Shown: positions 5,210 to 61,982 of the stretch, in pieces
How positions within the stretch are numbered: the stretch's first letter is position 1
Layout of the letters: every line of letters starts with the position of its first letter
Source of the DNA: Sclerodactyla briareus
Taxonomy: Eukaryota; Echinodermata; Holothuroidea; Dendrochirotida; Sclerodactylidae
Direction: 5' to 3'
Assembly (NCBI GenBank): GCA_026419785.1
Contig: JAODTK010005165.1
Coordinates: 62,001-126,000 of the forward strand
Length of the DNA: 64,000 nt
Program-made: the position numbers and the translations under genes
The notes under the pieces: model-generated
What the model saw: only the letters and a program-made list of their open reading frames with translations
What the model was told of the DNA's origin: nothing
Database searches by the model: none

Positions 5210-5357
5210 TTACTGCGAGCTGGGCATCCGCCGCAGCTGCACGTAGGAGATGGTCAGCAGCCCAACGATCATGCAGAACAGCGCCATCTCGTTTTGCCAG
5301 AGGCCCCACGTTGCTGTAGTCGAGGCCCTGCTGTTCGAGGTAGGTCGTTCATTAGTG
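5210..5357 (-). CDS. ABCG2-like: ABCG2-like exon 16: last helix, C-terminus and stop
   Basis: The acceptor gattgttctacaacag ends at 5358. It reads CTNE (Cys equivalent to human Cys608, taking TG from exon 15), then YLEQQGLDYSNV, then GLWQNEMALFCMIVGLLTISYVQL followed by a basic end and a TAA stop at 5212-5210. Human ends YLVKQGIDLSPWGLWKNHVALACMIVIFLTIAYLKL plus a short tail. The final transmembrane helix and stop codon place the C-terminus at the same point as in human. Small indels lie near the start and before GLW. No obvious AATAAA was seen on this strand in the first few hundred bases downstream. Confidence 0.93.
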
Positions 5358-6785
5358 CTGTTGTAGAACAATCAGAACATTGTCGCAAGGAGGCAAACAC
5401 TTGTAAGGCAGAAGTACGATATCCCTTTAACAGGGTTGGTGATTTTTTTTTTTTTTTTCAAATCATGATTTGGAGAAGTGATTTAAAACAAATAAATTGA
5501 TTTAAATCAATTTAATCATATTTCAATCATGATTTTTTTTCGATGAAAATCCTGATTTGAATCAGCCTGATTGGAATAAAACAACCCTCCTTTTAAATAC
5601 CACCTTCCTCCCATTTGGTTCCCAACACTAGTTCCCAGGAGTGGGGGCACTACAACCAAGCATGACAGACAGTTGTTAATTTAGACAAAGAAATGGTATA
5701 GGATGACATTACCAGGTGAGCCGACCAAAAACATCAGGACTTAGGTATCCTCATAGGGAACAAGTATGAGCTACACACACAGGCGAAGCCAAGTTGTCAA
5801 TAAAAACCAGCTGAATTAATGGCCAACTATCAATTTTTTCACAGTTTTGGATCCTCATTTTCCCTTTTATTCTTTTTTAATTGACCCCTAGGCTACACAC
5901 AAGGGGCTCAGCACAAGAGATGGAGCAGGGGAGTAAACTGCTGTTCAGATGGCCCTGGCCCTGGCCCTGTTATTTGACATTCACAATAGTGGGCTTGGGC
6001 CAAGGTTCCGTCTCATTCGTCCAGCGACGTGGTTTGCGGTTCCCCAGCGAGTGCCCACAAACTCTCCTTCCTTTAATAGCTGTTGCACTAATTTTACAGT
6101 TAACTGTGTATCATTGCACATGATTATTATATCACTTAGTGAAAGTATCAGTTCTGCTAGAGGGATGGTCATGAAGGAAAGCCCCTGGCCGCCTGGCGCG
6201 CCTTACAAAAAACTTGGCCAAAAACATGGGTGTTCATGAGTGGCGTCATGGTTGTTCGGGGGTGGATTAATAGGGGTGCAGAACCACCAGGGCCCCTGTA
6301 GGGCATGGTTCGTAGGGTTGATGACAAGGCAAGGGCCAGGTCGTGACATGTCAGACCTGAATGACACCATGTTACTAATTAGTACTGACTGGGTCAAACC
6401 ATGTCACTGACAACCATGCCAACCATTTTTTTCATTGTAATCTATGAAATGTGGCAGGTACTTGCGACAGGGTCTATGACATGCCCTGACGTGGGTGAAA
6501 ACTACCGAGGGGGTGCCCAGGTCTGGCCCTGCTTAACCTCCGCCTTGGACATGGGATACCATACAATTGACACTCTTGGTTGACAACCGGGTGTTCATGG
6601 GTGATCACCCCTGTTTCACCCCTGATCAGGGGTGAACAACCCGTCCTTTGCCATGACGCCCCTGGCGACACCCATGTTTTCCATCAGGATTTTGTGTAAT
6701 GTAAGGCGGCAACACATGATCGCATATGTCTACTGGTGGCTTGAGGCTAGCACCTGCATAGGTCAGCCCCTGTGTAATAAACTAC
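5358..6785 (-). other. Intron between exons 15 and 16
   Basis: About 1.4 kb. It contains a T-run and palindromic AT-rich repeat at 5437-5570 (separate entry). The rest shows no recognised feature; a (ggccct)n-like stretch lies at 5948-5970. Confidence 0.75.
5437..5570. repeat. Palindromic AT-rich 'aaatcatgattt' repeat
   Basis: After a run of T come interleaved short palindromes: aaatcatgattt, tgatttaaatca and again atcatgat, ending at aatcctgatttgaatcagcctgatt. Such self-complementary blocks resemble ends of dispersed repeats in marine invertebrates. The family is not identified. Confidence 0.6.
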
Positions 6786-6864
6786 CCATTATCCACCATA
6801 ATATCCATCCCCATGGGAGTCCCCACAGAAAGTCAAGTCCTTCAATTCATTGATCCGCCAAAGC
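6786..6864 (-). CDS. ABCG2-like: ABCG2-like exon 15: large extracellular loop
   Basis: The acceptor ttgttcatttcag ends at 6865. After a one-base slip it reads INELKDLTFCGDSHGDGYYGG, against human HNEFLGQNFCPGLNATGNNPCNYAT. The Asn-Glu and Phe-Cys anchors are kept; the Cys corresponds to human Cys592 of the loop's intramolecular disulfide. There is no readable Asn-X-Thr/Ser matching human Asn596, and no Cys matching Cys603, which links the human dimer. The 3' edge uses ATGG|gtagtt at 6785, and a donor at 6796 (gtggat) is an alternative. Length is about 79 nt against 83 for human. Confidence 0.78.
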
Positions 6865-8740: not shown

Positions 8741-8830
8741 GTTTTGACTGTATCTGAAGATGCTGAGATTACTGCAGCCACTGTAACCACCTGGAAGAAG
8801 ATGTAATGTTACAATAAGACCACTGATAAT
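8741..8830 (-). CDS. ABCG2-like: ABCG2-like exon 14: helix 5 end and re-entrant region
   Basis: The acceptor ttctcctttttcctcag ends at 8831 and the donor AAAAC|gtgagt is at 8740. Length is exactly 90 nt, as recalled for human exon 14. Both ends share frame 0: IISGLIVTL at the start and LSIFRYSQN at the end, aligned with human IFSGLLVNL and FSIPRYGFT. The centre reads WLQWLQ in a different frame, matching human WLSWLQ. The segment thus holds two compensating indels that preserve total length, which fits base-calling error and is hard to explain by neutral decay alone. Confidence 0.92.
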
Positions 8831-10107
8831 CTGAGGAAAAAGGAGAAAAAACATGCAATATTATGAACGGATCACAACACCACTTGGCCTTCAGAATCTA
8901 ACCAGGTTTCAGCTTGTTAGAGTATGTAGGCTGTCCCTCTACTGACTGGTCCTTGGGGTCAAGAAAGTTTCACACTTTTCCGAAAAAATCGTCTGTAAAT
9001 AGAAGGTTGCGAAGGAGTAGAAGAATATATATCCATTCTTTCCTATAAGGTAGTCTGCAGTCTCAAAATGTGGAACAAGTGGGTGGTACAAGTGCACTCT
9101 AAACGCCTGGGAGAGTTCAATTTCTGGCAATCCGGGGGCTTGCAACCAACCAAAATTGTTTTATGCGCTACGTGCCACCCACGGTGTGTCTCCGTCTTTA
9201 GTATAGTACTCTGTGCCCTCCAAAAATGTCTGTGCCCCCCAGTATGAACAGTCTGGTAACGCCACTGCTATTTGCAAATTTGACTTAGAGTTTCACAATC
9301 AATTATGGTGCGACCACTTGTTTAAAGTTAGGTGCTTGCACGGTACACATACTAAGCTAATAAAATAGCCTCAAAGATTCGGTCTAGGTAACTCGCAACG
9401 ATTTCCGGGCACAAACATGGTTCAAAATTCAGGTGAGGATAAGTGGTCATGGAGTCCAGCATGAATTGCGCGCGTGACTGTTGGCGAGTGGAATTTTCCA
9501 AAAGTGTTAAATTCTCCGCGATCAGCTTCAAACGCGCAGTTGTTGTTTTACTTCTCATATACTAATTTGGCTACCTGTCTGGTCCCTGATTAGAAGTTCC
9601 TCCATGTGCGCCTGTGGTCCGCATATAGGATGGATGGGGGCCGTAATCTTTGAGTAAAAACTCAGCTATCTAAGTGATAGGTCAAAGAGGGTTCAGTGCC
9701 ATTCGTTGGTCAAATGGATTTCTGCAAATCTTGTGGTTGTTGCCATGCCCCATTTCCATTTGCTCCTTTCATGACTGTACCTAACTGCTGGTATTGTAGA
9801 TGTCACATCACCCCAACGCAGCACTGTTAAGGTGATAAGTTTTTTGAGAACTTTTCCTAAAATAAAATTTGTTTATCAATTCTAGGATTGCTGCGTATCT
9901 GTCCCATAAGGCACAGGAAGTGCCGTTTCCTGCAATCTAGGGGTCGGTCAACGAAAGAAAGATTGTTCGCTACGCGCCAATAACCTGTGGTGGCGCTCCG
10001 CTTAGATAAGTATTCAACTTGTCCCCGCCCCCCCCAACCTCAAACACAAATCGCCGCCCTTGGCATTATTCAATCGCGTCAGGGATGGGAAACCATTGTG
10101 AGACTCC
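8831..10107 (-). other. Intron between exons 13 and 14
   Basis: About 1.3 kb. At 9257-9271 is 'ctggtaacgccactg', which resembles a transposon terminal inverted repeat, but no partner was found nearby. Otherwise nothing recognised. Confidence 0.65.
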
Positions 10108-10258
10108 CATCATTACTACTAGCACATTGCGATGAGGAGGGTTGCGATTCCACAATGTCGACCTTGAGCTAATTGCACAAGGCGATACTTGTGGCCGTTA
10201 GGTGGTTAGGAGTAACGTCAGCACGTAGATGCCAAACGCACTGGCGGTCCTTCTCAGC
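10108..10258 (-). CDS. ABCG2-like: ABCG2-like exon 13: transmembrane helices 4-5
   Basis: The acceptor ctctattttgcag ends at 10259. The readable pieces in order are TASAFGIYVLTLLLTT, TSIAL, SS, IVGIATLLIAMC and VMM, against human KADAFFVMMFTLMMVAYSASSMALAIAAGQSVVSVATLLMTICFVFMM. These form transmembrane helices 4 and 5. The expected donor after ATGATG reads ggagtc, a gtgagtc site with one base missing at 10107-10106. Length is about 151 nt against 155 for human. Several single-base gaps break the frame, so the exon is invisible to ORF finding. Confidence 0.86.
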
Positions 10259-10440
10259 CTGCAAAATAGAGATTGGTGGTTCAGCGTATTAAAAGCTACA
10301 TTACAGTGTAGAAGGGAATTCACCTTCAGGGACCGTTCACACAGACCACCTGGGATCACTTGAGCAATTGATCAACTACTAGGTGTGCCCAGATGGATTA
10401 CCTGGGCAAACGATTCCCTCTGTTACTCCCAGGTTAGCAC

Positions 10441-11180: not shown

Positions 11181-11621
11181 TCCTATTGATGTGTAATACT
11201 GATTTATAGGTACATGCTTTCGTTCATTAGATATGTGGTGACAAGAACCTCATCAGAAAAGGTCACAATGCTTGTTCATACAGTGAATACTCACAAATAT
11301 GATCATGTTCTGAGTATGCTTTTACCTGTTTATGAACGCACTAATTCAGCATTACACAAGATTCTATTGGGGGCCTCTGTCTCGTTCTGAATGACAAAGT
11401 ATATAACCTGTCAAAAAGTATAGGTGTTCCAAAAAAGCGAGTTGGAAAAACTGAATATTTTTTTGTCTCGTAACTCAAAGCTCCTAGTAGACAACCTTGG
11501 AAAGTCATCCACTCCCACTTGGAGAACATGCATAAATCCTCTCTCCCGACCAGGGCCCTATTATGAAGAGGTCAGTTCATATATAGACAGCAATATTTTA
11601 TAGAAACGAGATGGTACCCAC

Positions 11622-11750
11622 CAATCATCCAATAGGTATCGTACAATATATCAAGGAGGGTAATGTTCGCAGGGGGGGAAGGTCACAGATGAGACTGGGA
11701 GCAGAAGTGGAAGAGAAGCGATAAAAACCACCTAGCCTGATCGTGTATGT
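11622..11750 (-). CDS. ABCG2-like: ABCG2-like exon 12: transmembrane helix 3 region
   Basis: One open stretch reads GGFYRFSS, LICDLPPLRTLPSLIYCTI, matching human SGYYRVSSYFLGKLLSDLLPMRMLPSIIFTCI. The Arg of PLR corresponds to human Arg482, whose replacement alters substrate choice in drug-selected cell lines. The start (human HEYISG) is garbled and the acceptor AG is not visible, so the 5' edge near 11750 is approximate. The donor GATTG|gtgggt at 11621 follows YWMIG when one base is skipped, matching human YFMLG in phase. Length is about 129 nt against 125 recalled for human. Confidence 0.83.
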
Positions 11751-12092: not shown

Positions 12093-12104
12093 CCAGTTAG
12101 AACA

Positions 12105-13120
12105 TTGTAAGTATACAATGGCATTCATTGAACTGTCAGCATTCAACCTGAGCACCTTCCTCCAGTTCTCCTATTAAAAACATGTAAGTATACATTGAAC
12201 TGTCAGCATCCATCCTAAGCACCTCCTCCAGGGTTCCTGTAAACATGGGTATATGTAGACATAGGCATACATTGAACTGTCAGCATCCATCCTAAGCACC
12301 ATCTACGGTTCGGCTGTAAACATCTGGAACCAATACCATTGAACTGTCCGCATTATCTAGACCATCCTCCAGTTCTCCTGGAAAACATTGTAAGTCTACA
12401 TAGGCATACATTGAACTGTCAGCATTCAGACTAAGCACCATCTTCAGTTCTCCCTGTAACATGGAGTATACATAGGATACATTGAACTGGTAGCATCATC
12501 CTTGGCACCATTCTCAATTCTGCTGTAAACATTGGATGTATACATAGGCATAATTGAACTGTCAGCATTCACCCTAAGCACCATTCTCAAGTTCTGCTGT
12601 AACTTGTAAACATACATAAACATACATTGAACTGTCGCATTCACCCTGGCCCATTCTCAAGTTCGCGGTAAAACATTGTAGTTATACTTAGACATCATTG
12701 AACTGTAGCATTCATCGGAGGCCCACCATTGCTTAGGTTCTGCTAAAATGTATTATACAAAGGCATACGTGGAATGTCAGCATTCATCCTAAGCACCATC
12801 CTCAAGGTTCTGCTGTATACATTGTATGTATTACTAGAGCTACATTGAACTGTCAGCATTCATCCTAGGCACCATCTTATGTTATGCTGTCAAAACATTA
12901 ATTTTACATAGGCATACATTGAACTATCAGCGTTCATCCCAAGCACCCAGTCTCACGGCTTGCTGTAAACATGTAAACATTACATCTGAACTGGCAGCAT
13001 TCATCCTTGGCACCATCCCTTAGGTCTGCTGTAAAATTGTATGTATACATAGGAATACAAGTGAAAAACAAACAGTCAGCATTCATTCTAAGCCCATCCT
13101 CAACTTTCTGCCTGTAAAGC
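12105..13120. repeat. About 77-bp minisatellite
   Basis: About 13 copies built on acattgaactgtcagcat, cctaagcaccat, ttctgctgtaaacat and tatacataggcat. Copies differ largely by scattered one-base gaps, for example gtcagcat, gtcgcat and gtagcat, a pattern typical of unpolished long reads over repeats. Confidence 0.93.
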
Positions 13121-14300
13121 ACTGATAAACTGATCATGCTGGCAGGTGTTAGTTACTTCAGCTGTGGAGATGTAAACAAAAAGTAGATTGAGAAACTTGA
13201 AGATACAGCAATATCACCAGGTTCCATAGCGCTCCCAAAAGAAAAAGAGAGTACCCAAGAGTTCACATACCTATTGTACTTCAAGTGGCTACCAGCAGTA
13301 AATCTCATACATCTCCACTTTAGACCAATGATTATTTTACAATTTGGAATATCTCTATTCAGGTGATTGGCAAAATTAAATGGGTAACCATTTTTACGTG
13401 AAATAGTACCCACAACCAGTGATTTATGTAATAGGTTCAACCAAACAATAACTTGCGTACCAATCCAAATGGCCAATAATTTCTTCAACAACATCTGCCG
13501 ATGTATGATTTGATTATATGTTTATAAAGTGATTTATTGATATGAACAATGGAACAAAGTTCCAACAATTTTTCAGGAACCAACAATGTATGATGGGATG
13601 ATTTCAACCAATAATTTGAAAGATATTGTCTCTTTCATTGCCTCACCTTACCCAACATATCGACCCATTCAGCAGTTCTCAGCAGCAGTTTCAGTGCGTT
13701 GCGAGGGATTCGCTTCATCGGTATTGAAACCAATCCATCTCGATTTGTAGAATTTCTGTGGAAAATCACACGCTTCATTTGTGCCGATATAGGGCCCTAA
13801 TTTTTGGCGATCATAGGAAGATCTCCAATTTGCTGATTTTCTCTGCAGAAAATCACAGAAACAACATGTCCTTTACCGCGATGACGGGAAGTTGCCAGTG
13901 GTAATGATACAAGCCCGATACGATTACCGAACCAATTATCGTAGCGCCATAATTCTGATGGAAGCAATTATTTACTGAGTAACTTAGTTAGTGATACGAT
14001 CACCTAAAAAAGTTGTGTGTGATAGTATGATAGCCATGAATGCCTACAAAGCAGTACACAGGGTGCCGGAGAAGTCTGGCGACAATTCCCATGATTTTTC
14101 ATGACATTTTCACGACCAAATAAAGGATTCCATTACATGGTATTTATGAAATCTTCATAAGGAATTTTCAACGGAACATTAAAAAAAAAGAGCCGAAGCA
14201 ACAACAGTGAACAGTGTGAGGAAAGTAATGTAGTATGATTACCAAATAGCACAAATGTGGCTCAATGTCAATTGTCCAAAATGGAACGGGCCATACTCAC

Positions 14301-14388
14301 ACAATATTTTCCTGTCGTTTATGAGAGCTCAATGGCACTATGTTTACCAAACAACTGCTGCATAATGAGAAAGAAGAAGGCACCGACT
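14301..14388 (-). CDS. ABCG2-like: ABCG2-like exon 11: transmembrane helix 2, substrate pocket
   Basis: The acceptor tgtttccctcacag precedes 14388 and the donor TTGT|gtgagt is at 14300. It reads VGAFFFLIMQQLF, then SAIEL and (one missing base) INDRKI, against human AGVLFFLTTNQCFSSVSAVELF and VEKKLFI. Helix 2 lines the drug-binding cavity of ABCG2. The phenylalanines equivalent to human Phe431, Phe432 and Phe439 are kept, while positions of Thr435 and Asn436 read Met and Gln. Length is 88 nt against 90 recalled for human. Confidence 0.87.
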
Positions 14389-14959: not shown

Positions 14960-15042
14960 CTGTTATGAATACAGATCGACTGAAGTGTCCAGCTGGAGTA
15001 GATACCACCCACGACTGAGGGAGAATATGCGATGGTGCTCGT
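14960..15042 (-). CDS. ABCG2-like: ABCG2-like exon 10: transmembrane helix 1
   Basis: The acceptor ctttccccccaccgcag ends at 15043 and the donor AACAG|gtggtt is at 14959. Length is exactly 83 nt, the recalled human exon 10 length. The frame reads STIAYSPSVVGGIY and, after a base is skipped, FQLDTSVDLYS, aligned with human IIVTVVLGLVIGAIYFGLKNDSTGIQN. The Gly-Ile-Tyr at the outer end of helix 1 and the Asp-rich loop are the best anchors. Similarity alone is moderate. The support comes from exact length, clean splice sites and position between exons 9b and 11. Confidence 0.82.
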
Positions 15043-16267: not shown

Positions 16268-16329
16268 CTGTAGATAGTCAGGAATGGCTTGCGGATTATG
16301 TTCTTCACGGCTCTCTGGGTACGTGAAAA
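16268..16329 (-). CDS. ABCG2-like: ABCG2-like exon 9b: first membrane helix approach
   Basis: The acceptor tactctccgtccaactcag ends at 16330 after a good pyrimidine tract. The reading is FSRTQRAVKNIIRKPFLTIY, matching human LRWVSKRSFKNLLGNPQASIAQ: the amphipathic connecting helix leading into transmembrane helix 1. The donor CAG|gtgagt is at 16267. Codons just upstream of the chosen acceptor (TLRPTQ) also resemble human TTSFCHQ, so the true exon may begin up to about 20 nt earlier, at a site now lacking its AG. A 42-bp minisatellite begins about 160 bp upstream of this exon. Confidence 0.76.
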
Positions 16330-19300
16330 CTGAGTTGGACGGAGAGTAAAATGCAGTTAATTTTGGACTTTTCAATTTTGAAATCTCTCAAAGACATCGA
16401 AGACAGTACTACCAATCTGGGATATACGAGGGGGTTACCTATCTTGATACCCATATGTTTTCAACAAGAGCCAACCCCACAGCTTTTCGCTGTTGCTTGA
16501 TAAGAGCCACCCAAGGCCAGGCTCTTCGGCAGTTGGTTGAACACACCACCCACAGGCCAGGCCACTCCGCAGTTGCTTGAACAGAGCCACCCACAGTCCA
16601 TCCCTCTCTGCAGTTGTTTGAACAAATGAGCCACCCACAGGCCATGCCACTCTGCAGTTGGTGAACAGAGCCCCCCACATGCCGGACCCTGCAGTTGTTG
16701 AACAAGAGCCCCCCCACACGCAGGCCCTCTCGCAGTTTGTTGAACAGAGTCACCAGAGGCCAGGCCTCTCTGCAGTTGGTTAACACGAGCCCCCCCAGCC
16801 AGCCACTCTGCAGTTGGTTGAACTAGAGCCACCCAAAGGCCGGCCATGGCTGCAGTTGGTAACAAGAGCGCATTCACAAAGCCAGCCCCTCTCAGTTGGG
16901 TGAGACAAGCGCCACCCACAGGCCAGGCTCGATCTGCAGTTGGGTGAACAAGAGCCACCCACAGGCCAGCCACTCTCAGTTGTTGAACAAGAGTCACCCA
17001 CAGGCCAGGCCACTCTGCAGTTGGTTAAAACAAGAGATCACCCACAGGCCAGGCCACTCTGCAGTTGGTTGAACAGAGCCACCCACATGCAGGCACTCCT
17101 CTGCGTTGGTTTGAACAAGAGCCACCCACAGGCCAGTCTCTCTGCAGTTGGTTGACAAGAGCCACCCACAGCCAGGCCCTCTCCTGCAGTTGGTTGAACA
17201 AAGAGCCCAGCACAGGTCCTTTTTTCGCCAGTTGCTTGAACGAGAATCCCGAAAAGGCTTTTCTCTAGTTTGGTTGAACAGACCCCCCCCAACTGCCGAA
17301 AAGCGATGGCTTTGGTTTTTCCTCATCCACGCACAGTAATGAAACTGGAGAGTTTCAACATAGCCGCTGATATGGCTGGGTGCTGGAAAGTGTTGGTGTG
17401 TGGACTAACAAATTCCACCGGGGTAACTCACGTGTATGGGATACGGATATCGAAAAGATGCAATCAAGAAGACTATTGTTGGCAGATCCAGGCCAACACA
17501 GCATTCCGCGAATATCCAAATTTTGTTCGGACTACTTCTCTATATTCGTTACCATTCTACCAAAGATGCAAAGATGCAGGAATAAGTATGACCTGCTAAA
17601 GATAAAACACATTTGAACATTACTTGATGATATTATTGGAAGGGGCGGGGAATATTGTTTCTGACATTTGCCTAACTGTAATTCGGTATACAAAGTCGTG
17701 TTCCGGAAACAAAACTGGAGGTCAATATGAATGACTCAAACATCCGCTCCATAGCGTCTGTGAACGATCTCGTATCCCGCGTCAGTGGGTAGACTAAGAC
17801 CTGTTGTTTATCATAATAACTGTTTTCGATTCTCCTTCCTAGGCAGTGGCATCACTTTCAACTCGAATTCACTAGTAGTTGTCTTTCACATTCATATATC
17901 TGATGCTTTTCGATGAGCCTATGTATATATCATTCTATGCATTTTTTTATAGTCTTTTACACATTCTATTTTCTAACCACATGTGATTCCTAGTACTCGG
18001 TCGTACGTGATTCTATTATCGTCTTCCTTCTTTTAACTCTGTCCCATATGTTGTTTGCAGACATTTAATTCCTTTCGAGGAGGTGATAAAGTTTATCTAA
18101 TCGATCTTCTTATCCATCCATCTATCTAATAGAAATTGTTCGGCAAGCAACATCCTCAACGCTTTATAATCAGCCTGCTGAGCAGATGATGGGGAAAGCC
18201 TGTTCCTTAACAACGAGGGGGTATCTCGTTATTGGTCTATCAGATGTCTGCAGGGTTTCCTTTGACAAATCCCCCAAAATTGGAATCTCTCTCATTCAAT
18301 TAATGGATGTAGCTGTCAATCCTGACAGCGCATGGCCATCGAACCATATTCCCTATTTGCAACACTAATGCACTACTGCCAATCTTGAATGTTAGGCTCC
18401 ACCCAAGGCCCCTCAATAGTTGTGTGAATCTCATATCGACAGCTAGCAAATTTCATTAGACCAAAGTCAGTCCTAAAGGTGTTTGTATTGGAAACCGCTG
18501 TTGTCGATAGCGTAATTGGTTAATCTCGTTTATATAGAATGGAGAGCCTGATCATATCATGTGAAAACATCAGATTCTACACCCCCACTAATCCTTATGC
18601 GAATACAGATTCGATTGGCTAATCCCAATCACTTGACCGTCTGCCTTTTTTGGCATAACAGTCAGCTGGGCACAGTAACCCAACATCGAATAACTTGCTC
18701 GATTGCTTGGTTTATCATCTTTTCAAAAGCGCAAATGTTACGTTGCGTGAGCCTTTGGAAGTACTGCTTCGAAATACGAACGGGCGACAACAAAGCGTAG
18801 CTCGTTGCATTCGTGAACGTCATGTTCACAACCGCGCAGAACCCTCCAGTTCAAGGCACGCGCGGTATTGCGTCTCACAGTCTCCGTGGAAATTGCACAG
18901 CACGCCTGCTAAACTTCTGTGTATTTACGCAATGCAATTCACTACTTCGATCGAACTAGGCGCAATAGTTTTACCCTTGCTGCTTATTTACTGTTTAGAG
19001 ATCCAAGGATATAGATCTAGAGATATTGATATCTCTAATCGTTTGGGTAATACTTAATTGGGGGGGAGGGAGTTGCGAGGTTGTTAAAACAGGAAATAAA
19101 CTACAGCAGGTCGACCTTTACTGGTTCATAACCATTCTCCGACTCTGCCAATTAGCCTAATAACAAACTCTCGGCTGCGCCTCGTCCGTGTATTCGTCAG
19201 TAAAAGTCTGCCAGTTGCAGTTTTATTTCCTTACGACGGTTTCATCACCATGGAGCTACTCTATTAACTGGAGAGAACATCAGAGCGCGTATTGTTTGCC

Positions 19301-20095: not shown

Positions 20096-20281
20096 CTGTG
20101 TCATGAAAGACTTGGGTAATGTGGATCAATTGCTCCTCCTGTACCCTGGCTTCCTCCTTCTTGTTGGGAGTTGGTCCAGAATCTGCTGAGAGGCAGTCTG
20201 TAGGTCAGAGGCAGCGTGCTGCCCTTGAACTCATCCTCGGGGTACTCTTTTGCAATCTTCTGATAAACTCCCAGCTCGTGT
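20096..20281 (-). CDS. ABCG2-like: Probable ABCG2-like linker exon (5' part of human exon 9)
   Basis: The acceptor tttctctccag ends at 20282. In three successive frames the segment reads YQKIAKEYPEDEF, then DLQTASQQILDQLP, then NKKEEARVQEEQLIHITQVF. Human exon 9 has EKLAEIYVNSSF, KAELHQL, GEKKKK and ITVFKEISY in the same order, so this is proposed as the charged linker between the two domains. Two donors are possible: AG|gtacag at 20144 or ACAG|gttacc at 20095; the longer is preferred because it keeps ITQVF. With exon 9b it sums to 248 nt, against 251 for the single human exon. Sequence identity is low in this fast-evolving region, so it could instead belong to another gene. Confidence 0.55.
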
Positions 20282-22604: not shown

Positions 22605-24300
22605 AAAATACAACAACCAAAGCCCAAAGACTTGTGATCCTAGACTCTCCCTGACACCTATAGCTAGACACGAGACAAATGGAAGTTTGCACCAGCTCAT
22701 TATGGGCAACATAACACTGACAATTCCGTTTATTTTCCCAACACCAATAGAGGTCCTATACTCTTGATACGAAAGCTACACACTGAAATTCAAGATTCTC
22801 TGACCTTTGACCTTGCGACCTCAGAGACTCTCTGACCTGACCCAAAACAATAGGGTTCAAGTACTCATCGTGGGGGAACACATCCCAGTAGTAGCTTCTC
22901 CATCCAGGCCGGGTCGATTATCGTGTTTACAGCCAAAATTGGCCAAATATCGACTTTTCCACCAAATTTTCTATTTTGACTCAAATTCACCTCCGACCTA
23001 TACCAAAAACAAATAGTGTGTCCTGTACTCCCCATAGGAAAGCTACACACCAAATTCAACCTGATGAGAACAAACTATTCTGGCCTTTATCATGTTTACA
23101 AGGTTTACAGACTTTGATCTCTGGTGAACTCAGATGACCTCTGACCTCCATAACCAATAGGGTTTTCATGTAACCTCATATGCGGACCACACCATAGCCA
23201 AGTATGAGCTTCAATCCATCCAGCTGGGGTCACGTTATCGGTTCAAAGCCAAAAATTGGCTAATTTATTGACTTTTCACAATTTTCTATCTTTGGACCAA
23301 AATTCACCCCACCCTATATAACCAAAAAAATGGGTTCCGGTGCTCCCCTTAGAAAAGCTACACCACAAAACACCAAATCAACCTGATCCACCACCCATTC
23401 TGACTCTCGGTTTACAATCGTTTTTCAACACGTGACCTCTGTGACCTTTGACCTACACCCGAAACAATAGGGTAATGTACTCCTCATGGGGAACCCATAC
23501 CAAGTTATGAGCTTCATCCATTCAGGCGAGTCGAGTTTATCATTTTTATAAGCCCAAAATTTTTGGGGGGGGGGGGGCCCCCCCCCAAAAAAAAATATTG
23601 ACTTTTCATTCACAAATTTTCTTTTGTGAGACCAAAATTCATCACCCCCAACCTATACCAAAAACCAATAGTGTTCCTGTACTCCCATCCCCATAAGAAA
23701 GCTACACAACCATTCACCCTTATCAGACCAATCATTCTGGACTTATTGTGTTCCCAGGTTTTTCACAGACCTTGACTGCTGGTGACCTCAAATGACCTCT
23801 GCCTGACCCCAAACAATAGGGTCCATGTCCTCATTGTGGATACACACAATACTAAGTATGAGCTTCATTCATCCATGCGGGGACGAGTTATCGTGTTACA
23901 GCCAAATTTCGGCCAAAATATCAACTTTTCAATTTCTATTTTTGACGCAAAATTCCCCCACCTATACCAAAACAATCGGTTTCTGTACCCCCTAGAACTA
24001 CACAAACCCAAAACAAGTACAACCTTACCAGACCAGTAATTCTGGACTTATCATGTTTACAAAGATTTTCAGACTTTGACCTCTGGTGACCTCAGATGAC
24101 CTCTGACCTGGACCCACAACAATATGGTTTATGTACTCATCATGGGGAAACCATACCAAGTATGAGCTGGACCTACCCAGACCTGATCAAGTTTCGTGTT
24201 TACCAGCTGGGCCGTCACAAATACAAACCCACACACCACGACGTGACTAATAGATATCCCTCGACCTTCGTCAGTGAATCAAAACTCCTTCAGAGATTAG
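22605..24300 (+). mobile_element. Helitron/pearl-like tandem-array element, copy A
   Basis: The left end has aaagcccaaagacttgtgatcc. The centre is 4-5 half-units with caatagggttcatgtactcat, accaagtatgagcttcatcc and gtttacaagccaaaattgg modules. Next comes a short CA-rich tract (24210-24240) and a right end atccctcgaccttcgtcagtgaatc. The same order of modules occurs in copies at 32.1, 58.7 and 59.2 kb. The layout of core repeats, microsatellite tract and terminal palindrome is that described for bivalve pearl and other non-autonomous Helitron-related elements; that assignment is inferred from structure only. Confidence 0.6.
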
Positions 24301-27118: not shown

Positions 27119-27217
27119 CTTCTGCTTTTGCTTTGAGGGCAGTGACGGCCTGTACTGGTCCTCGTTGATTTATCCAGGAAGACGTCTGGAGGGTTATTGT
27201 AGCTTCACATTCATAAC
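27119..27217 (-). CDS. ABCG2-like: ABCG2-like exon 8: NPADFF-type linker start
   Basis: The acceptor gcttttgtcag ends at 27218. The exon reads YECEAYNNPPDVFLD across one missing base, against human YHCEAYNNPADFFLDIING. This is the conserved end of the nucleotide-binding domain in ABCG proteins, where the linker to the membrane domain begins. A variable, charged tail follows, ending ...KAKAEG. The donor AG|gtaacg is at 27118. Length is 99 nt against 102 recalled for human. The first two bases (GT) complete a glycine codon with the G at the end of exon 7, the same phase as human Gly281. Confidence 0.88.
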
Positions 27218-28206: not shown

Positions 28207-28370
28207 CCTGTCTGAAAGTAGTCCAGGGTTTTGTCCGGCGGGCCTGGTAGGAAACGTGTTACCCCGGGAGACGGAGGTGTAACTGTCGAAGAGAGGCGGT
28301 AGATGGTGTACGCGAGGCTGGTGGATGGAGAAGAAGATTATGGTCCTCGTCCTCTCTTGGACACGCGCAT
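28207..28370 (-). CDS. ABCG2-like: ABCG2-like exon 7: H-loop (switch histidine)
   Basis: The key stretch is SKRGR, then TIIFFSIHQPR, human SKQGRTIIFSIHQPRYSIFKLFDSLTLL. The His of SIHQPR is the switch (H-loop) histidine that senses the ATP gamma-phosphate. Downstream come LFDS and then, in another frame, GPPDKTLDYFQTG, human GPAQEALGYFESAG. The donor GG|gtaagc at 28206 is canonical and falls at the human position to within a base. The 5' edge near 28370 is approximate, because no clean AG acceptor is visible before the ATG that matches the human MSKQG start. Small duplications (an extra TTC, an extra GG) make it about 12 nt longer than human. Confidence 0.86.
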
Positions 28371-28994: not shown

Positions 28995-29169
28995 TTCGCA
29001 AGGAGGTGCATGACTGCGGCTGGCGGGTGTGGCCATCCAGCCTGTGGGGCTCGTTTTTTTCCCAGGAGGAACAGGAACAGGAGGGTGGGTTTGATGACAG
29101 TTCCCATTACCGACGCTGGTCCTCTTACGCTTCCCCTCCTGACACCCCTCTGATGGACTCGGTCCCCAC
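28995..29169 (-). CDS. ABCG2-like: ABCG2-like exon 6: ABC signature and Walker B
   Basis: This encodes VGTESIRGVSGGE, then (after a one-base slip) RKRTSV, matching human VGTQFIRGVSGGERKRTSIGMEL; VSGGE is the ABC signature (LSGGQ) loop. Further on come LLFL and, after an insertion, EP-TGLDGHTASAVMHLLA, human LFLDEPTTGLDSSTANAVLLLL (Walker B and D-loop). The donor AA|gtgagt at 28994 is phase 2, as in human. The segment is about 17 nt longer than human exon 6, and the excess sits between the Walker B FL and the Glu-Pro. The 5' edge is set by homology; the base where acceptor AG is expected is AT (29171-29170). A longer exon from the AG at 29201-29200 is possible. Confidence 0.87.
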
Positions 29170-29846
29170 ATGCGAGTGGAAGTTTTTTTCAAGAGTGTTC
29201 TGTGAGAATATCCACACCTAAACATTCTTCAAGGAGGAAACAGGGGACAAATGTTGAGATAGAAAAAGATGGGCAGGAAAACAACATAAATTTTGATGAA
29301 AAGTGAGCAAAATGGAAAGGAAATAATTATATTTCTTGCATTTCATATTCAGTGGCATTTTCCTTTCGATTGGCTGGAAATTGTGATGAAATTAGAAGTG
29401 GTGGTTAGTGGATCAGGGCGGGCCAACCTTGTTTGAGACTCAGTAGCAGCAACTAGCTCTCCTCAATCGACAGTGAGTGTCCAGTATCTAGATCCTATAA
29501 TATATTGGCACAAAATCCCCTCTTCAGTCCACTCTCTCTTACAAGGGCGCAACCACACTGTAAAAGTTGGGTGGGCGTCCTAAGCAATGAAGAGCATCGA
29601 TTTCTGTGGTGTGGTGGAAGAAAAAATTGCGGAGAGAGGCCCCAGTGTGGATTGAATAATTGAAATAGCGGAGAGGTTTGGCTACGAAGAATATCCAACT
29701 TGTAAACTTTAGATTCACAAACGGTACCTTGAATACAAAAGTCTATGTTGGTGGACAGATAGACCCAAGACGACCAGGACAGACAGACTAGAACAGACAT
29801 TTTGTAGGTAACGGCACCCCGAGAGAAGACGAAGCCTATTACTCAC

Positions 29847-30000
29847 CTTTCGGTGTCTGCACAATGAACCAGTCCCAGTTCTTTGATAACATCATCGACC
29901 CGGTCTTTGCGCTTCAGACTCGAGATATCCCTTCGGAAAGACGGAGAGCAGCAGAGAATGCCAGGTTCTCCCTGACTGTCAATGTCCCATGACAACATAT
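29847..30000 (-). CDS. ABCG2-like: ABCG2-like exon 5: helical subdomain (VRENL)
   Basis: The acceptor tttcctctgactcttcag ends at 30001. After a damaged start (expected DDVVMG) the frame reads LTVRENLAFSAALRL, almost identical to human LTVRENLQFSAALRL, and then, after a frameshift, KRKDRVDDVIKELGLVHCADT, human ERINRVIQELGLDKVADS. The donor AAAG|gtgagt is at 29846. Length is 154 nt against 153 recalled. This is the alpha-helical subdomain that couples the ATPase to the membrane domain. The residue equivalent to human Gln141, site of the common Q141K reduced-function variant, reads as Ala here. Frameshifts lie near the start, in the middle and at the last codon. Confidence 0.95.
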
Positions 30001-36619: not shown

Positions 36620-36733
36620 CTGGACTACATATCGAGAGACCAGCTTGAAGGTCTTTGCTGGGGCTTAACATCAATCAGGACCAAGTCCGACAAGCGTTGG
36701 GTCCTTTCTGGCAGCAAAGGTTGTCAAGGAAGT
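36620..36733 (-). CDS. ABCG2-like: ABCG2-like exon 4: post-Walker A to Q-loop
   Basis: The acceptor ttccttctttcatgatag ends at 36734. The exon reads FLDNL, then (after one extra T) AARKDPTLVGLG, then (after another indel) VLID and finally YVVQ, matching human LLDVLAARKDPSGLSGDVLI ... GYVVQ. The terminal Gln is the Q-loop residue that contacts the nucleotide's magnesium ion in ABC ATPases. The donor CAG|gtaaga at 36619 lies directly after that Gln in phase 0, the human position. Length is 114 nt against 115 recalled for human. At least three frame changes occur inside it, so no ORF of useful size covers it. Confidence 0.87.
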
Positions 36734-47392: not shown

Positions 47393-47448
47393 ATGTCTTG
47401 CCACTCCCTGTTGGCCCCAGGATTGCGTTCATACCGACCAAGACTAGG
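47393..47448 (-). CDS. ABCG2-like: ABCG2-like exon 3: Walker A (P-loop)
   Basis: This encodes GMNAILGPTGSGKT, the ATP-binding P-loop; human ABCG2 has GLNAILGPTGGGKS. The acceptor ttttcttgtcag ends at 47449, and AG from exon 2 plus the first C restores a serine codon. The segment is 56 nt, against 60 recalled for human; the lost codon lies where human has the KPG stretch before the P-loop. The donor is ACAT|gtagta at 47392. Joined to exon 4 it reads GKT-YFLDNL, matching human GKSSLLDVL, so the frame is continuous across the junction even though the phase differs by one base from human. It lies 14.3 kb downstream of exon 2. Confidence 0.9.
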
Positions 47449-47799
47449 CTGACAAGAAAACCATACAAGGATATTGAGAAATATAAATTTGGTGGTGGGG
47501 CTTCCTTTGGCGATGCACGCCTCCCGGGGCTCCCTGGCGCGCTTCCTGGCGGACGAGCCTGCTTTCCTGTGTGAACGGAATCCCGTTAGGTTATTACATG
47601 ATGTTGATGGAAAATCCCTTCTTGATTATGAGATCACACTCCTCTCATGAAAGATACCTAGCTGGGAATTCCCTCCCTTGTTCAATTTCCTCATCACTAT
47701 TAAACACTGTGTGGCATGTGTTTTTCCCAAAATTTTATTTTTTTTTTTTTGTTTTTTTTTTAAAAAAAAAAATAATTCATTAAAAATAAAATAACTGTC

Positions 47800-52895: not shown

Positions 52896-54553
52896 CAGGG
52901 GCGTCGCCAGACCATTCCTTCTGGGGGGGTGTACCTCCTATTTTTGCCGACTAACATGATGAGTTTGCCGACTACCATGCTGAGTTTGCCGACTAACCCC
53001 GCCTTCATATATATAGAGGGAACGCCGCCACAAAATGTCACCCAACAGTGTGTCTGTACCACGGTAGCAGGCTGGGTGTTTGATTAATGAAGCCGTGCCA
53101 CCAGCGGATTGCGCAGAGGCAAAGCTTTAGAGTTAGTTATCAAGGTACCCTCAGCTCTACCATAGGGATACTAACTGAGCTCAGGCTGCATCTGAAGTAG
53201 TCGTCTTATTCTGGACACTGGGGGGTGGCATATTAGTTGAGTAGAGCTGGGAGTAGTGTACTATCCAAGCGGAGCGCCACCTTTGGTTGGCGCGGAGCGT
53301 TCCAGAAAATTTTTGGTTTCGTAAGCCCTCAGATGGCAGGAAACGGCCCTTCCCAAGTGTTTTAGGCTGCATGGCACTGATGTGAAATTTCTATACCGCC
53401 ATAGATTGCCAAACATTTTTATCCTCTCTTACCGGGCCTTTCAATTCTCACTTCTAAAATGGGCGGATGAATTTTTCAGTCCCAAAATTTTGATCAAGGC
53501 AGTTAGACCAAACTTCAGTTGAAGAATACTCTAGACGGACTAGACGTCAAATGATTTTCCACCGAGATTGAGTGACTGAATGTTTTGCCTTAATTGACTG
53601 GCTTTCAATCAAGAAGGTGTTTCCCGTGCCTCAACTGAAATTCCATTTTATTAGACGGAAATTTCATTCCATCATTCAAGAGAGTTTCTTCAAGCGGAGC
53701 GCCACCTTTGGTTGGCGCGGAGCGTTCCAGAAAATTTTTGGTTTCGTAAGCCCTCAGATGGCAGGAAACGGCCCTTCCCAATGTTTTTAGCTGCGTGTTA
53801 TCCATGCCTCAACTGCAATTCCATTCTATTGGATCGGAAATTTCATTCCATCATTTCAACAGAGTTTCTTCATTTGCGCCGCTGGGGCACAAACAATTTC
53901 TTTCTATATATACTGACACAGATTGCCGGAGATGGCCTTTCAGACCATTTTTAGCCAGAGATATTCTGAAGAGTTGAATGTAAAAGTTTTCACTTTCGCT
54001 TTTTCGAAAACCCTTCCTTCCTTCTTCTAGCCCTTTTGACGTTTCAATTTGCTTAGTTCTGAACCACTAGAAATTGCCAGCCGGACTTTGTGAAGGGTTT
54101 TTTGAATCTACAAGTTATGTTTTCTCTTCTTTTCAAAACCTTCCCTCCTCTCCATCAACATTTTACCGCCTCAGGGGTCACATTAACCCTCGTTCCATTG
54201 TTCTCCAATTTGCCTACTGGGCACGAAAGTTTGGTTTCTTTTCAACGTTTCATTTGTTCTTCAATTCGCCGACTAGACACAAAAGTTTGGTTCTATACTA
54301 CCATAGACTGTCTGGAGATGGCCCCCAGGCCATTTTGAGCCAGAAATATTTGGGATTGGTAAAAAATTGAACATAAAAGGTTTGCTTTTCCGTCCATAAC
54401 TGTTTATTCATCACGTTGGCTAAAAAAACTCGGTCACTTGCATTTTCCTAATCAGTATGTGCCAACTGGGGGGCAGATTTGGCCGCGGGGGCTTGAGGTG
54501 TGAAACTGGGGTGTGTCACACCCCCCTACACCCCCCCTCTAGCGACGCCCCTG
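52896..54553. mobile_element. Non-autonomous hAT-type DNA transposon
   Basis: Terminal inverted repeats: CAGGGGCGTCGCCAGA at the left (52896-52911) and TCTAGCGACGCCCCTG at the right (54538-54553); one mismatch in 16, with further pairing through ggggggtgta. An exact 8-bp target duplication, ACCATGAA, flanks it (52888-52895 and 54554-54561), the size made by hAT transposases. The interior has no transposase; it contains degenerate tandem copies of a unit with attccattctattggacgga, tttcattccatcatt and agagtttcttca, and two nearly identical 100-bp blocks (53268-53370 and 53694-53795). Confidence 0.87.
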
Positions 54554-57827: not shown

Positions 57828-58650
57828 TAAATCATAAAGCCAAGAGGCTTTTGATTCCTTAAACTGGGATAAATGGAACTTTGCCACAAGCTCATTATGC
57901 AGGATAACATTTCTCACAGATTTCCCATTTTTTTCACCAAAATTGACACCATTTCGCCAAAACGTAGGGTTTCCTGTACTCTTGATTAGAAAAGCTACAC
58001 ACTAAATTTCAACTTGATCAGATCGAGGCATCCTGGACTTATCCTGTTTACCTCTCTCTGACCTGACCCCAACCAATGGGTCTGTACTCCCCTAAGAAAC
58101 GCTACCACACACCAATCTACAGCTTCATCGGACCGACTTTTCTGGACTCAGATGAACATCTAACCTGAACCCCCAAAACAAATAGGGATCATTACTAGAT
58201 ATGGGGAACACACATACCCAATATAGCTTTCATCCATCCAGGTTGGTCTTGGGTGATGTTGTTTAAGAACCAAAATTGGCCAAATCTCAATTTTTTGACA
58301 TTTCCTAATTTCTTTCTTTCAAAAAGGTCTCCCAAACCAGATGCAAAATAATAGGGTTCTTGTACTCCCTCAGTTGGCTCCTTAAAACATTCACTCGCCA
58401 TTTGAATACCCTCTTCTTCTAACTAACAATTGGTTCTCCAACCCAATGCTCCTCCAAATAAACTCAAACAAACAACAGAGTAACAGCCATGGGTGGGATG
58501 TTTCTAAGCGGTCTTCAAATTTTCACGTTACCACCACCAAGGGTCGTCACTCAATGCCTGCCGGTGGCACGAGGCGGTGCTATCCCACCCTCAACATTTC
58601 CTTTCCATCCATCATAACTTTCAACCAAACAACTAAAGAGATCTAGGAAA
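57828..58650 (+). mobile_element. Helitron/pearl-like element, truncated copy D
   Basis: The left end aaagccaagaggcttttgattcc (hairpin aagcc/ggctt) is followed by the left-arm block ctcattatgcaggataacat and cagatttccc, then three diverged half-units. The CA tract and right palindrome are missing, so this copy is truncated. Copy E follows directly. Confidence 0.6.
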
Positions 58651-58654
58651 ATTC

Positions 58655-59235
58655 AGAGATCAAAAAAGAAACCAGGAAGCCAAAAGGCTTAGTTGATTCC
58701 CGACTCTTTATGACAACCTATAGCAAGGACAATGGGAGATGGAACAGTCATATGGGAACCATAATTCTGACAAATTTCCCATTTTTCCCCTGACCAAACA
58801 ATAGGGTCCTATACTCTTGATAAGGAAGCTACAACCTAAATATCAAGGTTTTCAGACTCTGACTGCTGGTGACCTCAAATGAACGCTGACCTGACCCCAA
58901 CAATAGGGTCGTACGCATCATGGGGGAACTCACATACAAGCATGAGGTTCATCCATCTGGGTGGGGGTCAAAGTTTATCATGTTTACAAGTCAAAATTGG
59001 CCAAAATATTGACTTTTCAAAAATTTCATATTTTTAACAAAAATACCTATGACCTGGACCAAAAACAATAGGGTTCCTGTACTCCCCATAAGAAAGTATA
59101 CACGAGATCTCAACCTGATCAGAACAAAAATTCTGGACTTATAGTGTATACAAAGCATCACACATACACCACACACCACTACGGACATGACTTACAAAAG
59201 ATTCCTCGACTTCGTCAAGGAATCAAAAAAATGCT
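58655..59235 (+). mobile_element. Helitron/pearl-like element, short copy E
   Basis: A complete small copy: left end aggaagccaaaaggcttagt, left arm ending gacaaatttccc, about one dimer of core repeat, a CA-rich tract (59160-59180) and the right-end palindrome at 59200-59224 with arms GATTCCT and AGGAATC around cgacttcgtca. It is the best copy for defining both ends. Confidence 0.7.
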
Positions 59236-59239
59236 GTAC

Positions 59240-61735
59240 CTGGACAAACCAGAAAGCCCAAAGGATTAGTGATTCCTTGACTGTTTTTCTGTCACTCACG
59301 CCCGACACATGACAAATGGGAGATGTACCAGCTCATTTAGGCACATAACTTCTGACAAATTTCCTATCGTACCAACCAACTAATAGGGTTCCTGTACCCT
59401 TGGTAAGAAGCTACACACTATATTTCGAGGTTTTTCAGACTTTGACTCGGTACCCTTAGATGGACCTCCGACCTGACCGCCAAAATAGTTGGTTTCGTGT
59501 ACTCTCCATGGGGAATACACAAACCAAGTATGAGCTCTCTTCACCCTGCCCTTCACCAAAACAATAGGGTTTATGTCTCCCCATAAGAAGATAACACCCC
59601 CAATTTCAAGGTTTTTCAGACTTTGATCTCCAGTGACCTCAGATGCCTCTGACTTGACCCCCCACAAAATAGGGTCCATGTAATCACCATGGGGAAAACA
59701 CACCAAGTATGAGCTCAGCCACCATGATGGGACTCATTTATCGTGTTTACAACCAAAATTGGCTAAAATATCAAATTTTTTCACAAATTGTTTATTTTTC
59801 GAATCAAAATTCACTCCTGACCTGACCAAAAGCAATAGGGTTCCTGTACTCCCCATAAGAAAGCTTACAACCTAATTCAACTGATCCGACCAAACAACCT
59901 AATGGACTTAATCGTGTTTAACGGTTTGCAGACTTTGAACCTCTGGTGACCTCAGATGAAACCTCTGACCGATCTCAACGATAGGTTCTATGTACTTATC
60001 ATGGGACACACATACCAAGTGTGAGTTTCATTCTCCGGGTGGGGTCGAGTTATTGTGGTTTACAGCCAAATTGGCGAATATCAAATTTTCACAATTTTCT
60101 ATTTTCCGGACCAAAATCGCCCGACTGAACCAGAAACAATAGGGTTCCTGACTCCCCATAAGTTACGCTATACACCGAATTTCACTTGATCAACCAACCA
60201 TTCTGGACATATATCGTTTTTACAACAGGTTTTCAGACTTTGACCTCTGGTGACCTGCAGATGACCTCTCACCTGACCCCAAAACAATAGTGTTCTCTAT
60301 CTACTCATCATGGGGAACACACTACCAAGTAATGAGCTTCATCCATCGAGGTTTGGTCGATATCGTGTTTACAAAGCCAAATTGGCCCAAAATATCGAAT
60401 TTTCACAAAGTTTTCTATTTTCGACCACTATTCATCACACCCGCCCTGGACAAAAACAATAGGGTCCCTGTACTTCCATAAGAAAGCTATACACCTAATT
60501 TCAACTGGATCAGACCAACCATTCTGGACATATCGTGTTTACAGGTTTTCAGACTTTGACCTCTGGTGACCTCAGATGACCTCTCACCTGACCCCAAAAC
60601 AATAGGGTTCATTACTCATCATGGGGAACACACATACCAAGTATGAGCTTCATCCATCGAGGTGGGGTCGAGTTATCGTGTTTACAAGCCAAAATTGGCC
60701 AAAATATCGAATTTTCACAAATTTTCTATTTTCGACCAAAATTCACCCGACCTGGACCAAAAACAATAGGGTTCCTGTACTCCCCATAAGAAAGCTATAC
60801 ACCTAATTTCAACTTGATCAGACCAACCATTCTGGACTTACCGTGTTTACAAGGTTTTCAGACTTTGACCTCTGGTGACCTCAGATGACCTCTCACCTGA
60901 CCCCAAAACAATAGGGTTCATGTACTCATCATGGGGAACACACATACCAAGTATGAGCTTCATCCATCCAGGTGGGGTCGAGTTATCGTGTTTACAAGCC
61001 AAAATTGGCCAAAATATCGAATTTTCACAAATTTTCTATTTTCGACCAAAATTCACTCCGACCTGAACCAAAAACAATAGGGTTCCTGTACTCCCCATAA
61101 GAAAGCTATACACCTAATTTCAACTTGATCAGACCAACCATTCTGGACTTATCGTGTTTACAAGGTTTTCAGACTTTGACCTCTGGTGACCTCAGATGAC
61201 CTCTCACCTGACCCCAAAACAATAGGGTTCATTACTCATCATGGGGAACACACATACCAAGTATGAGCTTCATCCATCCAGGTGGGGTCGAGTTATCGTG
61301 TTTACAAGCCAAAATTGGCCAAAATATCGAATTTTCACAAATTTTCTATTTTCGACCAAAATTCACTCCGACCTGAACCAAAAACATAGGTTTTTTTTGT
61401 ACTCCCCATAAGAAAGCTATACACCTAATTTCAACTTGATCAGACCAACCATTCTGGACTTATCGTGTTTACAAGGTTTTCAGACTTTGACCTCTGGTGA
61501 CCTCAGATGACCTCTGACCTGACCCAAAACAATAGGGTTCATTACTCATCATGGGGAACACACATACCAAGTATGAGCTTCATCCATCCAGGTGGGGTCG
61601 AGTTATCGTGTTTACAAGCTGGGCGTCACACACACACATACACACACACCCACACACACACACACACACACAACACACACTACGTACTGCATAGATCCTC
61701 TGACTTTCGTCACGGAATCAAAAATTAAACAACGA
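59240..61735 (+). mobile_element. Helitron/pearl-like element, long copy F with 310-bp array
   Basis: Begins right after copy E (agaaagcccaaaggattagt) and ends at gatcctctgactttcgtcac before ggaatcaaaaa (about 61727). The core is about seven 310-bp units; the last four (60.5-61.6 kb) are nearly identical, showing recent expansion or homogenisation. Each 310-bp unit is a dimer of two diverged halves, both with caatagggttc-tgtact and ttatcgtgtttacaag. The array ends 7 bp before the CA tract and about 165 bp from the first coding exon of the ABCG2-like gene. Confidence 0.72.
61626..61683. repeat. (CA)n microsatellite inside copy F
   Basis: Almost pure CA repeat with a few interruptions, lying between the core array and the right-end palindrome. 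The equivalent position is CA-rich in copies A, C and E. Confidence 0.95.
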
Positions 61736-61789
61736 ATACAAACAGCGTAACTTAGACAACCTATGGAAGAAACATAACTTTATATCAAC

Positions 61790-61982
61790 CTTATATTTGT
61801 CAGAATGGTTTTCTTGCCCATCTTGCCGTCAACTTTTGCCCGGACTTCGTAGTTGATATCGTGGCAGGAGACGGTTGTCCCAGTTATCCCCGTGTCGAAC
61901 CTGTTGCGTGTCCCATTGCTTGGTTTCGTGCTAGGCGTCACAGGGTGACTTTGGCTGAATGGGGCTATTGAATCCATCAAAC
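61790..61982 (-). CDS. ABCG2-like: ABCG2-like first coding exon (human exon 2): N-terminus
   Basis: The acceptor at 61985-61983 follows a T-rich tract (ttctttttaacag) and the ATG is at 61977-61975, five bases into the exon. This resembles human ABCG2, where a non-coding exon 1 is followed by an exon with a short 5' UTR before ATG. The frame is open for about 62 codons with no indel: a polar, low-complexity start (MDSIAPFSQSHPVTPS...) and then the conserved strand VSCHDINYEV and TILTNI, matching human VLSFHNICYRV and EILSNI. The donor is AG|gttgat at 61789. The phase-2 break falls in the codon matching human Asn68, the same position as in human. An upstream in-frame ATG at 62133 lies in the presumed intron and is not preferred. 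Confidence 0.87.

What the first reader, a model, noticed from the sequence alone, without database searches (positions are those of the whole stretch)
5210..61982. A full-length ABCG2-like gene hidden in apparently non-coding sequence
Sixteen short minus-strand segments, none forming a long ORF, align in order with the whole of human ABCG2, including Walker A, VRENL, VSGGE, SIHQPR, NPPDVFLD, the helix 2 pocket, LPPLRTLPS and the last helix. Thirteen of fourteen internal human exon junctions fall at or within a base or two of the human place, and the summed length (about 1966 nt) matches human (1968 nt). Automatic annotation would probably miss it because of indels.
Basis: partly seen in the sequence, partly recalled or inferred. 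Interest (0 to 1): 0.85.

Follow-up and report, generated by a model that had tools for sequence, protein, structure and literature searches.

The report
Ordinary sea-cucumber ABCG2 gene, error-ridden sequence
The stretch holds an ordinary animal transporter gene (ABCG2), very probably of a sea cucumber, and it looks hidden most likely only because much of this stretch of the assembly is of raw-read quality, full of one-base errors.

Summary
On the minus strand, 16 short exons between about 61,977 and 5,222 spell a near full-length ABCG2 in order. A splice- and frameshift-aware alignment scores 1095 against an echinoderm ABCG2 profile, versus at most 178 in 10 local shuffles. It is ABCG2 rather than ABCG1 (742 against 378).

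Closest relatives are sea-cucumber ABCG2 proteins, not human.

The indels are most likely not biology. Tandem arrays near both window ends (683-1345, 60,543-61,619) carry about 6 indels per kb; six array pieces inside carry about 72 per kb, mostly one base, together as many as the substitutions (280 to 240). The change is sharp near 60,540. Exon 2 lies in the clean part and shows no frameshift. The other 15 exons show 49 frameshifts and no in-frame stop in 517 codons. Simulated errors of about 7% indels and 4% substitutions reproduce this except for the missing stops; decay with four or more substitutions per indel does not.

Best reading: an ordinary holothurian ABCG2 gene under an unpolished long-read patch. 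The whole-genome check could not be run. Low interest.

The parts
61790..61982 (-). Exon 2 (N-terminus; ATG probably at 61977, acceptor TTTTTAACAG ending at 61983); no frameshift; lies in the clean right zone
   Evidence: printed sequence
47393..47448 (-). Exon with Walker A (GMNAILGPTGSGKT); no frameshift found in its 56 nt
36620..36733 (-). Exon LLDVLAARK..SGYVVQ, 3 frameshifts
29847..30000 (-). Exon GTLTVRENLAFSAALRL..KELGL..CADT; 3' end uncertain (donor GTGAGT at 29846, another at 29830)
28995..29170 (-). Exon with ABC signature RGVSGGE and the damaged Walker B region; 5' edge approximate (29199, 29149 or 29157 in different runs)
28207..28355 (-). Exon RTIIFSIHQPRYTIYRLFD, several frameshifts
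27119..27217 (-). Exon YECE.YNNPPDVFLD
20096..20281 (-). Exon of the linker between NBD and TMD
16268..16329 (-). Exon RAVKNIIRKPFLTI
14960..15042 (-). Exon VVGGIY.QLD
14297..14388 (-). Exon GAFFFLIMQQLFG..SAIEL
11618..11736 (-). Exon GFYRFS..CDLPPLRTLPSLIYCTI.YWMI
10105..10258 (-). Exon ASAF..LTLLLTT.TATSIA..GIATLLIAMC
8741..8830 (-). Exon SGLIV..WLQWL.LSIFRYSQN
6797..6864 (-). Exon INELK..FCG; 3' edge differs between runs (6786 or 6797)
5222..5357 (-). Last coding exon YLEQQGLDY.TWGLWQNEMALFCMIVGLLTISYVQLRRMP; last few residues and stop codon not modelled
683..1345 (.). 50-bp tandem array, clean: 5 indel events in 663 nt
60543..61619 (.). Clean part of the 310-bp tandem array: 5 indel events in 1,077 nt
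59607..60540 (.). Noisy part of the same array: 65 indel events in about 935 nt (40 in 494 and 25 in 441); sharp change at about 60,540

Best explanation
The window holds an ordinary, intron-rich ABCG2 gene, very probably of a sea cucumber (Holothuroidea). The real gene is presumably intact and encodes the usual ABCG2 half-transporter: an N-terminal ATPase domain followed by a membrane domain, which in the family works as a homodimer that pumps compounds out of cells with ATP. The gene looks broken because the middle of the window, from somewhere between about 1,345 and 5,315 up to about 60,540, is sequence of raw or low-coverage long-read quality (about 7% small indels and 4-6% substitutions) set between cleaner sequence on both sides, for example a gap filled with unpolished reads. 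Shown: colinear exons, subfamily, closest relatives, uneven indel density, fit of an indel-rich error model. Inferred: that the true gene is intact, the cause of the noisy patch, and the transport function.
For: Gene: 1095 against at most 178 in 10 shuffles; ABCG2 742, ABCG1 378; PF01061, PF00005 and PF19055 above cut-off. Sea cucumber: one search lists unnamed P0121 first, then Apostichopus, Holothuria leucospilota and two more Apostichopus proteins; P0121 scores 1294, vertebrate-like P0160 801. Even with the human-guided query, P0121 and P0122 show the higher identity (45% and 44%, listed primate proteins about 41%). Noise patch: by my sum, six interior array pieces carry 280 indel and 240 substitution events in 3,908 nt, the arrays near the ends 10 and 39 in 1,740 nt; one search shows the step near 60,540 within one array. 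Exon 2 has no frameshift in 165 nt, where about 4.6 would be expected at the rate of the other exons (49 in 1,741 nt). Simulation: 4% substitutions and 7% indels give on average 51.1 frameshifts, 68.8% identity, 82.0% of invariant sites, score 1547; the real exons 49, 69.1%, 80.9%, 1586. The rate fitted on exons is close to the rate in the interior arrays.
Against: No same-species intact copy, reads or second assembly could be seen; the genome tool did not complete. The real exons have 0 in-frame stops, whereas the best simulated cell has 3.2 on average and no run of 20 without a stop (4 of 20 at 2%/8%); stops were not part of the fit score. Cells with up to about two substitutions per indel still fit tolerably (8%/4%: 5.4 against 0.7 for the best), so the exon fit alone does not exclude a mildly indel-biased decay. 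Frameshift sites are not enriched in homopolymers: 16 of 50 have a run of 3 or more nearby, background 36.8%. Extra and missing bases are balanced, 25 to 25 (from the step lengths), unlike the insertion-skewed PacBio errors described in PMC3504050 (passages), so no platform is identified. Array copies can diverge naturally, older copies more. One tiny interior array (52,943-52,997, 55 nt) shows no indel, and the Walker A exon (56 nt), inside the noisy stretch, no frameshift.
Confidence: 0.88

Rival explanations
1. An unprocessed ABCG2 pseudogene: a real duplicated copy with its introns, decayed by neutral mutation, while a working copy sits elsewhere.
For: Frameshifts in 14 of the 15 exons outside exon 2, and replaced residues at otherwise invariant sites: 56 of 65 kept even at 5 or more steps from any indel or exon edge. 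Apostichopus has several ABCG2-like proteins. Simulated cells with about two substitutions per indel fit tolerably.
Against: Decay simulations with 4 or 8 substitutions per indel (10 settings, 10 runs each, up to 30% substitutions) reach on average at most 37 frameshifts, and then with 38% identity and 6 stops; observed 49, 69% and 0. The 5 grid cells with a ratio of 4 or more fit far worse (41-290 against 0.7). Exon 2 is clean, and non-coding arrays in the same stretch carry a like indel load while the end arrays do not.
Confidence: 0.08
2. A misassembly or consensus artefact of another kind, for instance two diverged haplotypes or paralogues merged in the middle of the window.
For: Would also give a bounded noisy stretch with clean flanks; indel signs are balanced and not tied to homopolymers.
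Against: Merging two working alleles should mostly keep the reading frame; 49 frameshifts and broken invariant residues do not fit.
Confidence: 0.035
3. A working gene that is really out of frame in the genome and is rescued by massive frameshifting or RNA editing.
For: No in-frame stops and good conservation between the frameshifts.
Against: About 50 frameshifts at unrelated sites, broken invariant residues, and a like indel load in non-coding arrays; no precedent known to me in animals (recalled, not searched).
Confidence: 0.005

Closest known systems
ABCG2 of sea cucumbers: P0122 (Apostichopus), P0123 (Holothuria leucospilota), and the unnamed P0121 (81% identical to P0122)
   Same: Colinear over the protein; 361 of 570, 340 of 572 and 382 of 578 aligned residues identical through the noise
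   Different: Window copy carries about 50 frameshifts, none found in exon 2; the true identity cannot be read until the sequence is cleaned
Human ABCG2 (PDB 6eti)
   Same: Domain order, Walker A, signature, SIHQP, membrane part to the last helix
   Different: About 40% identity through the noise; 16 coding exons modelled here, human 16 exons in all (passages)
ABCG1, ABCG5, ABCG8
   Same: Same ABCG superfamily fold and domain order (family knowledge)
   Different: Much weaker match: ABCG1 378 against ABCG2 742; 121-141 bits against 426
Gap filling with long reads (PBJelly, PMC3504050, passages only)
   Same: Noisy stretch bounded by cleaner sequence; the passages give about 15% raw error and list filled gaps of 68-76% accuracy
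   Different: Indels here are balanced between extra and missing bases, and the stretch (some 55-59 kb) is longer than I would expect of one filled gap (my inference); tool and platform unknown

Membership tests
ABCG2 (ABC subfamily G member 2) | Colinear near full-length match, better than to other ABCG subfamilies | tested here: met
   ABCG1 only; ABCG1, 5, 8; query guided by ABCG2
ABCG2 (ABC subfamily G member 2) | N-terminal nucleotide-binding domain, then ABC2 membrane domain | tested here: met
   PF00005 at 51-184 and PF01061 at 357-563 of the read-through
ABCG2 (ABC subfamily G member 2) | Walker A, VSGGE signature and SIHQP switch motif present | tested here: met
ABCG2 (ABC subfamily G member 2) | Walker B LFLDEPTTGLD | tested here: inconclusive
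   LFL is followed by frameshifts and a garbled stretch at about 29,070-29,020
ABCG2 (ABC subfamily G member 2) | Six transmembrane helices, homodimeric efflux activity | not testable with these tools
   no structure run; function needs a bench test on an intact sequence
ABCG2 (ABC subfamily G member 2) | Exon junctions shared with human ABCG2 | not tested
   no human gene structure available; only recalled coordinates
Unprocessed pseudogene | Disablements with substitutions well in excess of indels, and stop codons | tested here: not met
   49 frameshifts, 0 stops in 517 codons; best fit has fewer substitutions than indels, ratios of 4 or more fail, ratios up to about 2 still fit tolerably
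Unprocessed pseudogene | Second, intact copy in the same genome | not tested
   The genome search did not complete

The most novel reading that the evidence does not exclude
The indels are real DNA: a bounded genomic stretch of some 55-59 kb in a sea cucumber accumulates one-base indels about as often as substitutions, in a gene and in satellites alike, so that an ABCG2 copy with all its exons is being destroyed by an indel-biased mutation process.
Probability: 0.02. Interest if true: 0.6.

Novelty: new member of a known kind. Interest (0 to 1): 0.1.

Why it matters
As biology it matters little: ABCG2-like proteins are already listed for Apostichopus and Holothuria. As a warning it is useful. 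A bounded, noisy patch can make a normal gene look like a pseudogene or like non-coding DNA, so that it may be lost from annotation and from counts of detoxification genes. Comparing the indel load of tandem arrays inside and outside the suspect stretch is a cheap, reference-free check.

Tried and rejected
Homopolymer signature of the indels: looked for and not found. Homopolymer density in 4-kb bins: the last bin (60,001-64,000) is lowest for runs of 5 and of 6 or more, the first bin does not stand out, so no clean verdict. phmmer of the exon-2 ORF against the PDB: no hit. Rfam at gathering threshold: 0 matches. tRNAs: 0. Pfam on 8 other long ORFs of the 39 ORFs listed: no hit in any of the 8. 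Papers holding 'sea cucumber' and 'ABCG2': 44, of which 15 were listed; from titles and abstract starts none of the 15 is on a sea-cucumber ABCG2 gene. Papers on long-read polishing, gap filling, echinoderm ABC transporters and ABCG2 exons were seen as search listings, except the passages. A better match to another ABCG was considered and rejected. A processed (intronless) pseudogene was rejected because the model has 15 introns. Structure prediction was not run: a read-through with X at about 50 places would add little.
Full report
WHAT IS THERE. A splice- and frameshift-aware aligner written for this purpose gives a chain over nearly the whole protein: score 776 with human ABCG2. With the eight relatives tried it scores 1294 (P0121, unnamed), 1249, 1117 and 1077 (Apostichopus P0122, P0177, P0128), 1157 (Holothuria P0123), 1008 (sea urchin P0136), 959 (sea star P0167) and 801 (P0160, unnamed, 70% identical to human). 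With an echinoderm profile and settings that favour frameshifts over extra introns, the model has 16 coding exons from 61,917 to 5,222, 1,869 nt, 384 of 553 aligned residues identical to P0121, 50 frameshifts and no stop. The start codon is probably at 61,977, just after an acceptor-like TTTTTAACAG (sequence printed). The last few residues and the stop codon were not modelled.

CHANCE. The minus strand scores 1095 with the profile. The plus strand scores 141, the reversed sequences 153 and 154, and ten local 3-mer shuffles 132-178. With human ABCG2 the minus strand scores 776, the plus strand 283 and five shuffles 294-328. A reversed P0121 on the minus strand scores 298 (all).

WHICH FAMILY AND ORGANISM. 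Human ABCG1 (residues 94-678) scores 378, its three shuffles 275-288, the matching part of human ABCG2 742. Against solved structures the read-through gives ABCG2 426 bits, a plant ABCG16 156, then ABCG8 141, ABCG1 136 and ABCG5 121; that read-through was guided by ABCG2. Pfam finds ABC_tran, ABC2_membrane and PF19055 above their cut-offs. With the echinoderm-guided query the top five of the protein search are P0121 (no name), Apostichopus, Holothuria leucospilota and two more Apostichopus proteins, followed by sea urchins; 1674 of 7992 scored candidates passed and the best 120 are listed. With the earlier human-guided query three over-long vertebrate proteins came first by score, but P0121 and P0122 followed with higher identity. 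So the window is very probably holothurian; the species is unknown. No listed protein looks like the same gene of the same species: the best, P0121, is 61% identical through the noise.

WHY IT LOOKS BROKEN. Tandem repeats give a reference-free measure of sequence noise. Each array was aligned with its own consensus. Near the ends of the window, 683-1345 (5 indel and 32 substitution events in 663 nt) and 60,543-61,619 (5 and 7 in 1,077 nt) are clean of indels but for these few. Inside, 12,101-13,059 has 64 and 82, 16,492-17,207 has 53 and 41, 25,434-25,633 has 10 and 14, 32,337-33,434 has 88 and 48, 59,607-60,100 has 40 and 36, and 60,100-60,540 has 25 and 19. My sums: 10 indels in 1,740 nt outside, 280 in 3,908 nt inside; indels outnumber substitutions in 4 of the 6 inside pieces, and 234 of the 280 are of one base. 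Left out of this sum: two overlapping rows of the same arrays (12,337-12,947 and 16,502-17,207), one 55-nt array (52,943-52,997) with 0 indels and 2 substitutions, which goes slightly against the pattern, two arrays of short unit (47,733-47,761 and 61,627-61,680) that the script skipped, and the dispersed copies of the 310-bp unit (73-153 indels and 64-126 substitutions per kb), which may simply be old. In the 310-bp array the change from noisy to clean comes at about 60,540; an older edge and a young, homogenised core could in principle look alike. Exon 2 is to the right of that point and has no frameshift in 165 nt. Of the 15 exons to the left, 14 have at least one; the Walker A exon (56 nt) has none.

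ERROR OR DECAY. The 15 exons left of exon 2 (1,741 nt) give 49 frameshifts, no stop in 517 codons, 69.1% identity to P0121 and 169 of 209 invariant residues kept. Sequences simulated from the relative P0122, scored with a profile that leaves P0122 out, match best at 4% substitutions and 7% indels: 51.1 frameshifts, 68.8% identity, 82.0% of invariant residues (42 cells of 20 runs; fit on score, frameshifts, identity and invariant residues, stops not included). That is close to the interior arrays (7.2% indels, 6.1% substitutions by my sums, some natural divergence included). Decay settings with 4 or 8 substitutions per indel fail: on average they reach 37 frameshifts only at 30% substitutions, with 38% identity. 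Ratios up to about two still fit tolerably. Two results fit less well: the best simulated cell has 3.2 stops on average against 0 observed, and the frameshift sites show neither homopolymer enrichment (16 of 50, background 36.8%) nor an excess of extra bases, so the sequencing platform remains unidentified. The simulation also assumes that the true protein is about as close to P0121 as P0122 is, and the exon borders came from the same aligner.

CONCLUSION. An ordinary ABCG2 gene, very probably of a sea cucumber, lies for the most part under a bounded stretch of unpolished sequence. The gene and its family are shown. The intactness of the true gene and the gap-fill origin are inferred, and transport by an ATP-driven homodimer rests on family knowledge. 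The whole-genome test was not possible: the genome search did not answer in ten attempts.

Noticed in passing
window 22,963-24,150; 38,650-38,760; 58,173-61,619: Dispersed copies of a roughly 310-bp repeat unit, tandem at 59,607-61,619; the 160-bp array at 32,337-33,434 shares part of it at about 65% identity.
   Followed up: partly
window 35,675; 48,054; 57,399: Very long G or C homopolymers (21, 19 and 21 bases) inside the noisy stretch; none of the 40 runs of at least 8 G/C or 9 A/T lies at 1-2,000 or beyond 57,500. Could be real or read artefacts.
   Followed up: no
relatives P0122, P0128, P0193, P0199: Four Apostichopus ABCG2-like proteins whose longest contig has the same length (18,957,574), so possibly on one chromosome-scale contig: perhaps an ABCG2 gene cluster in sea cucumbers.
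   Followed up: no
window 683-1,345: Clean 50-bp minisatellite with two main sequence types of the unit.
   Followed up: no
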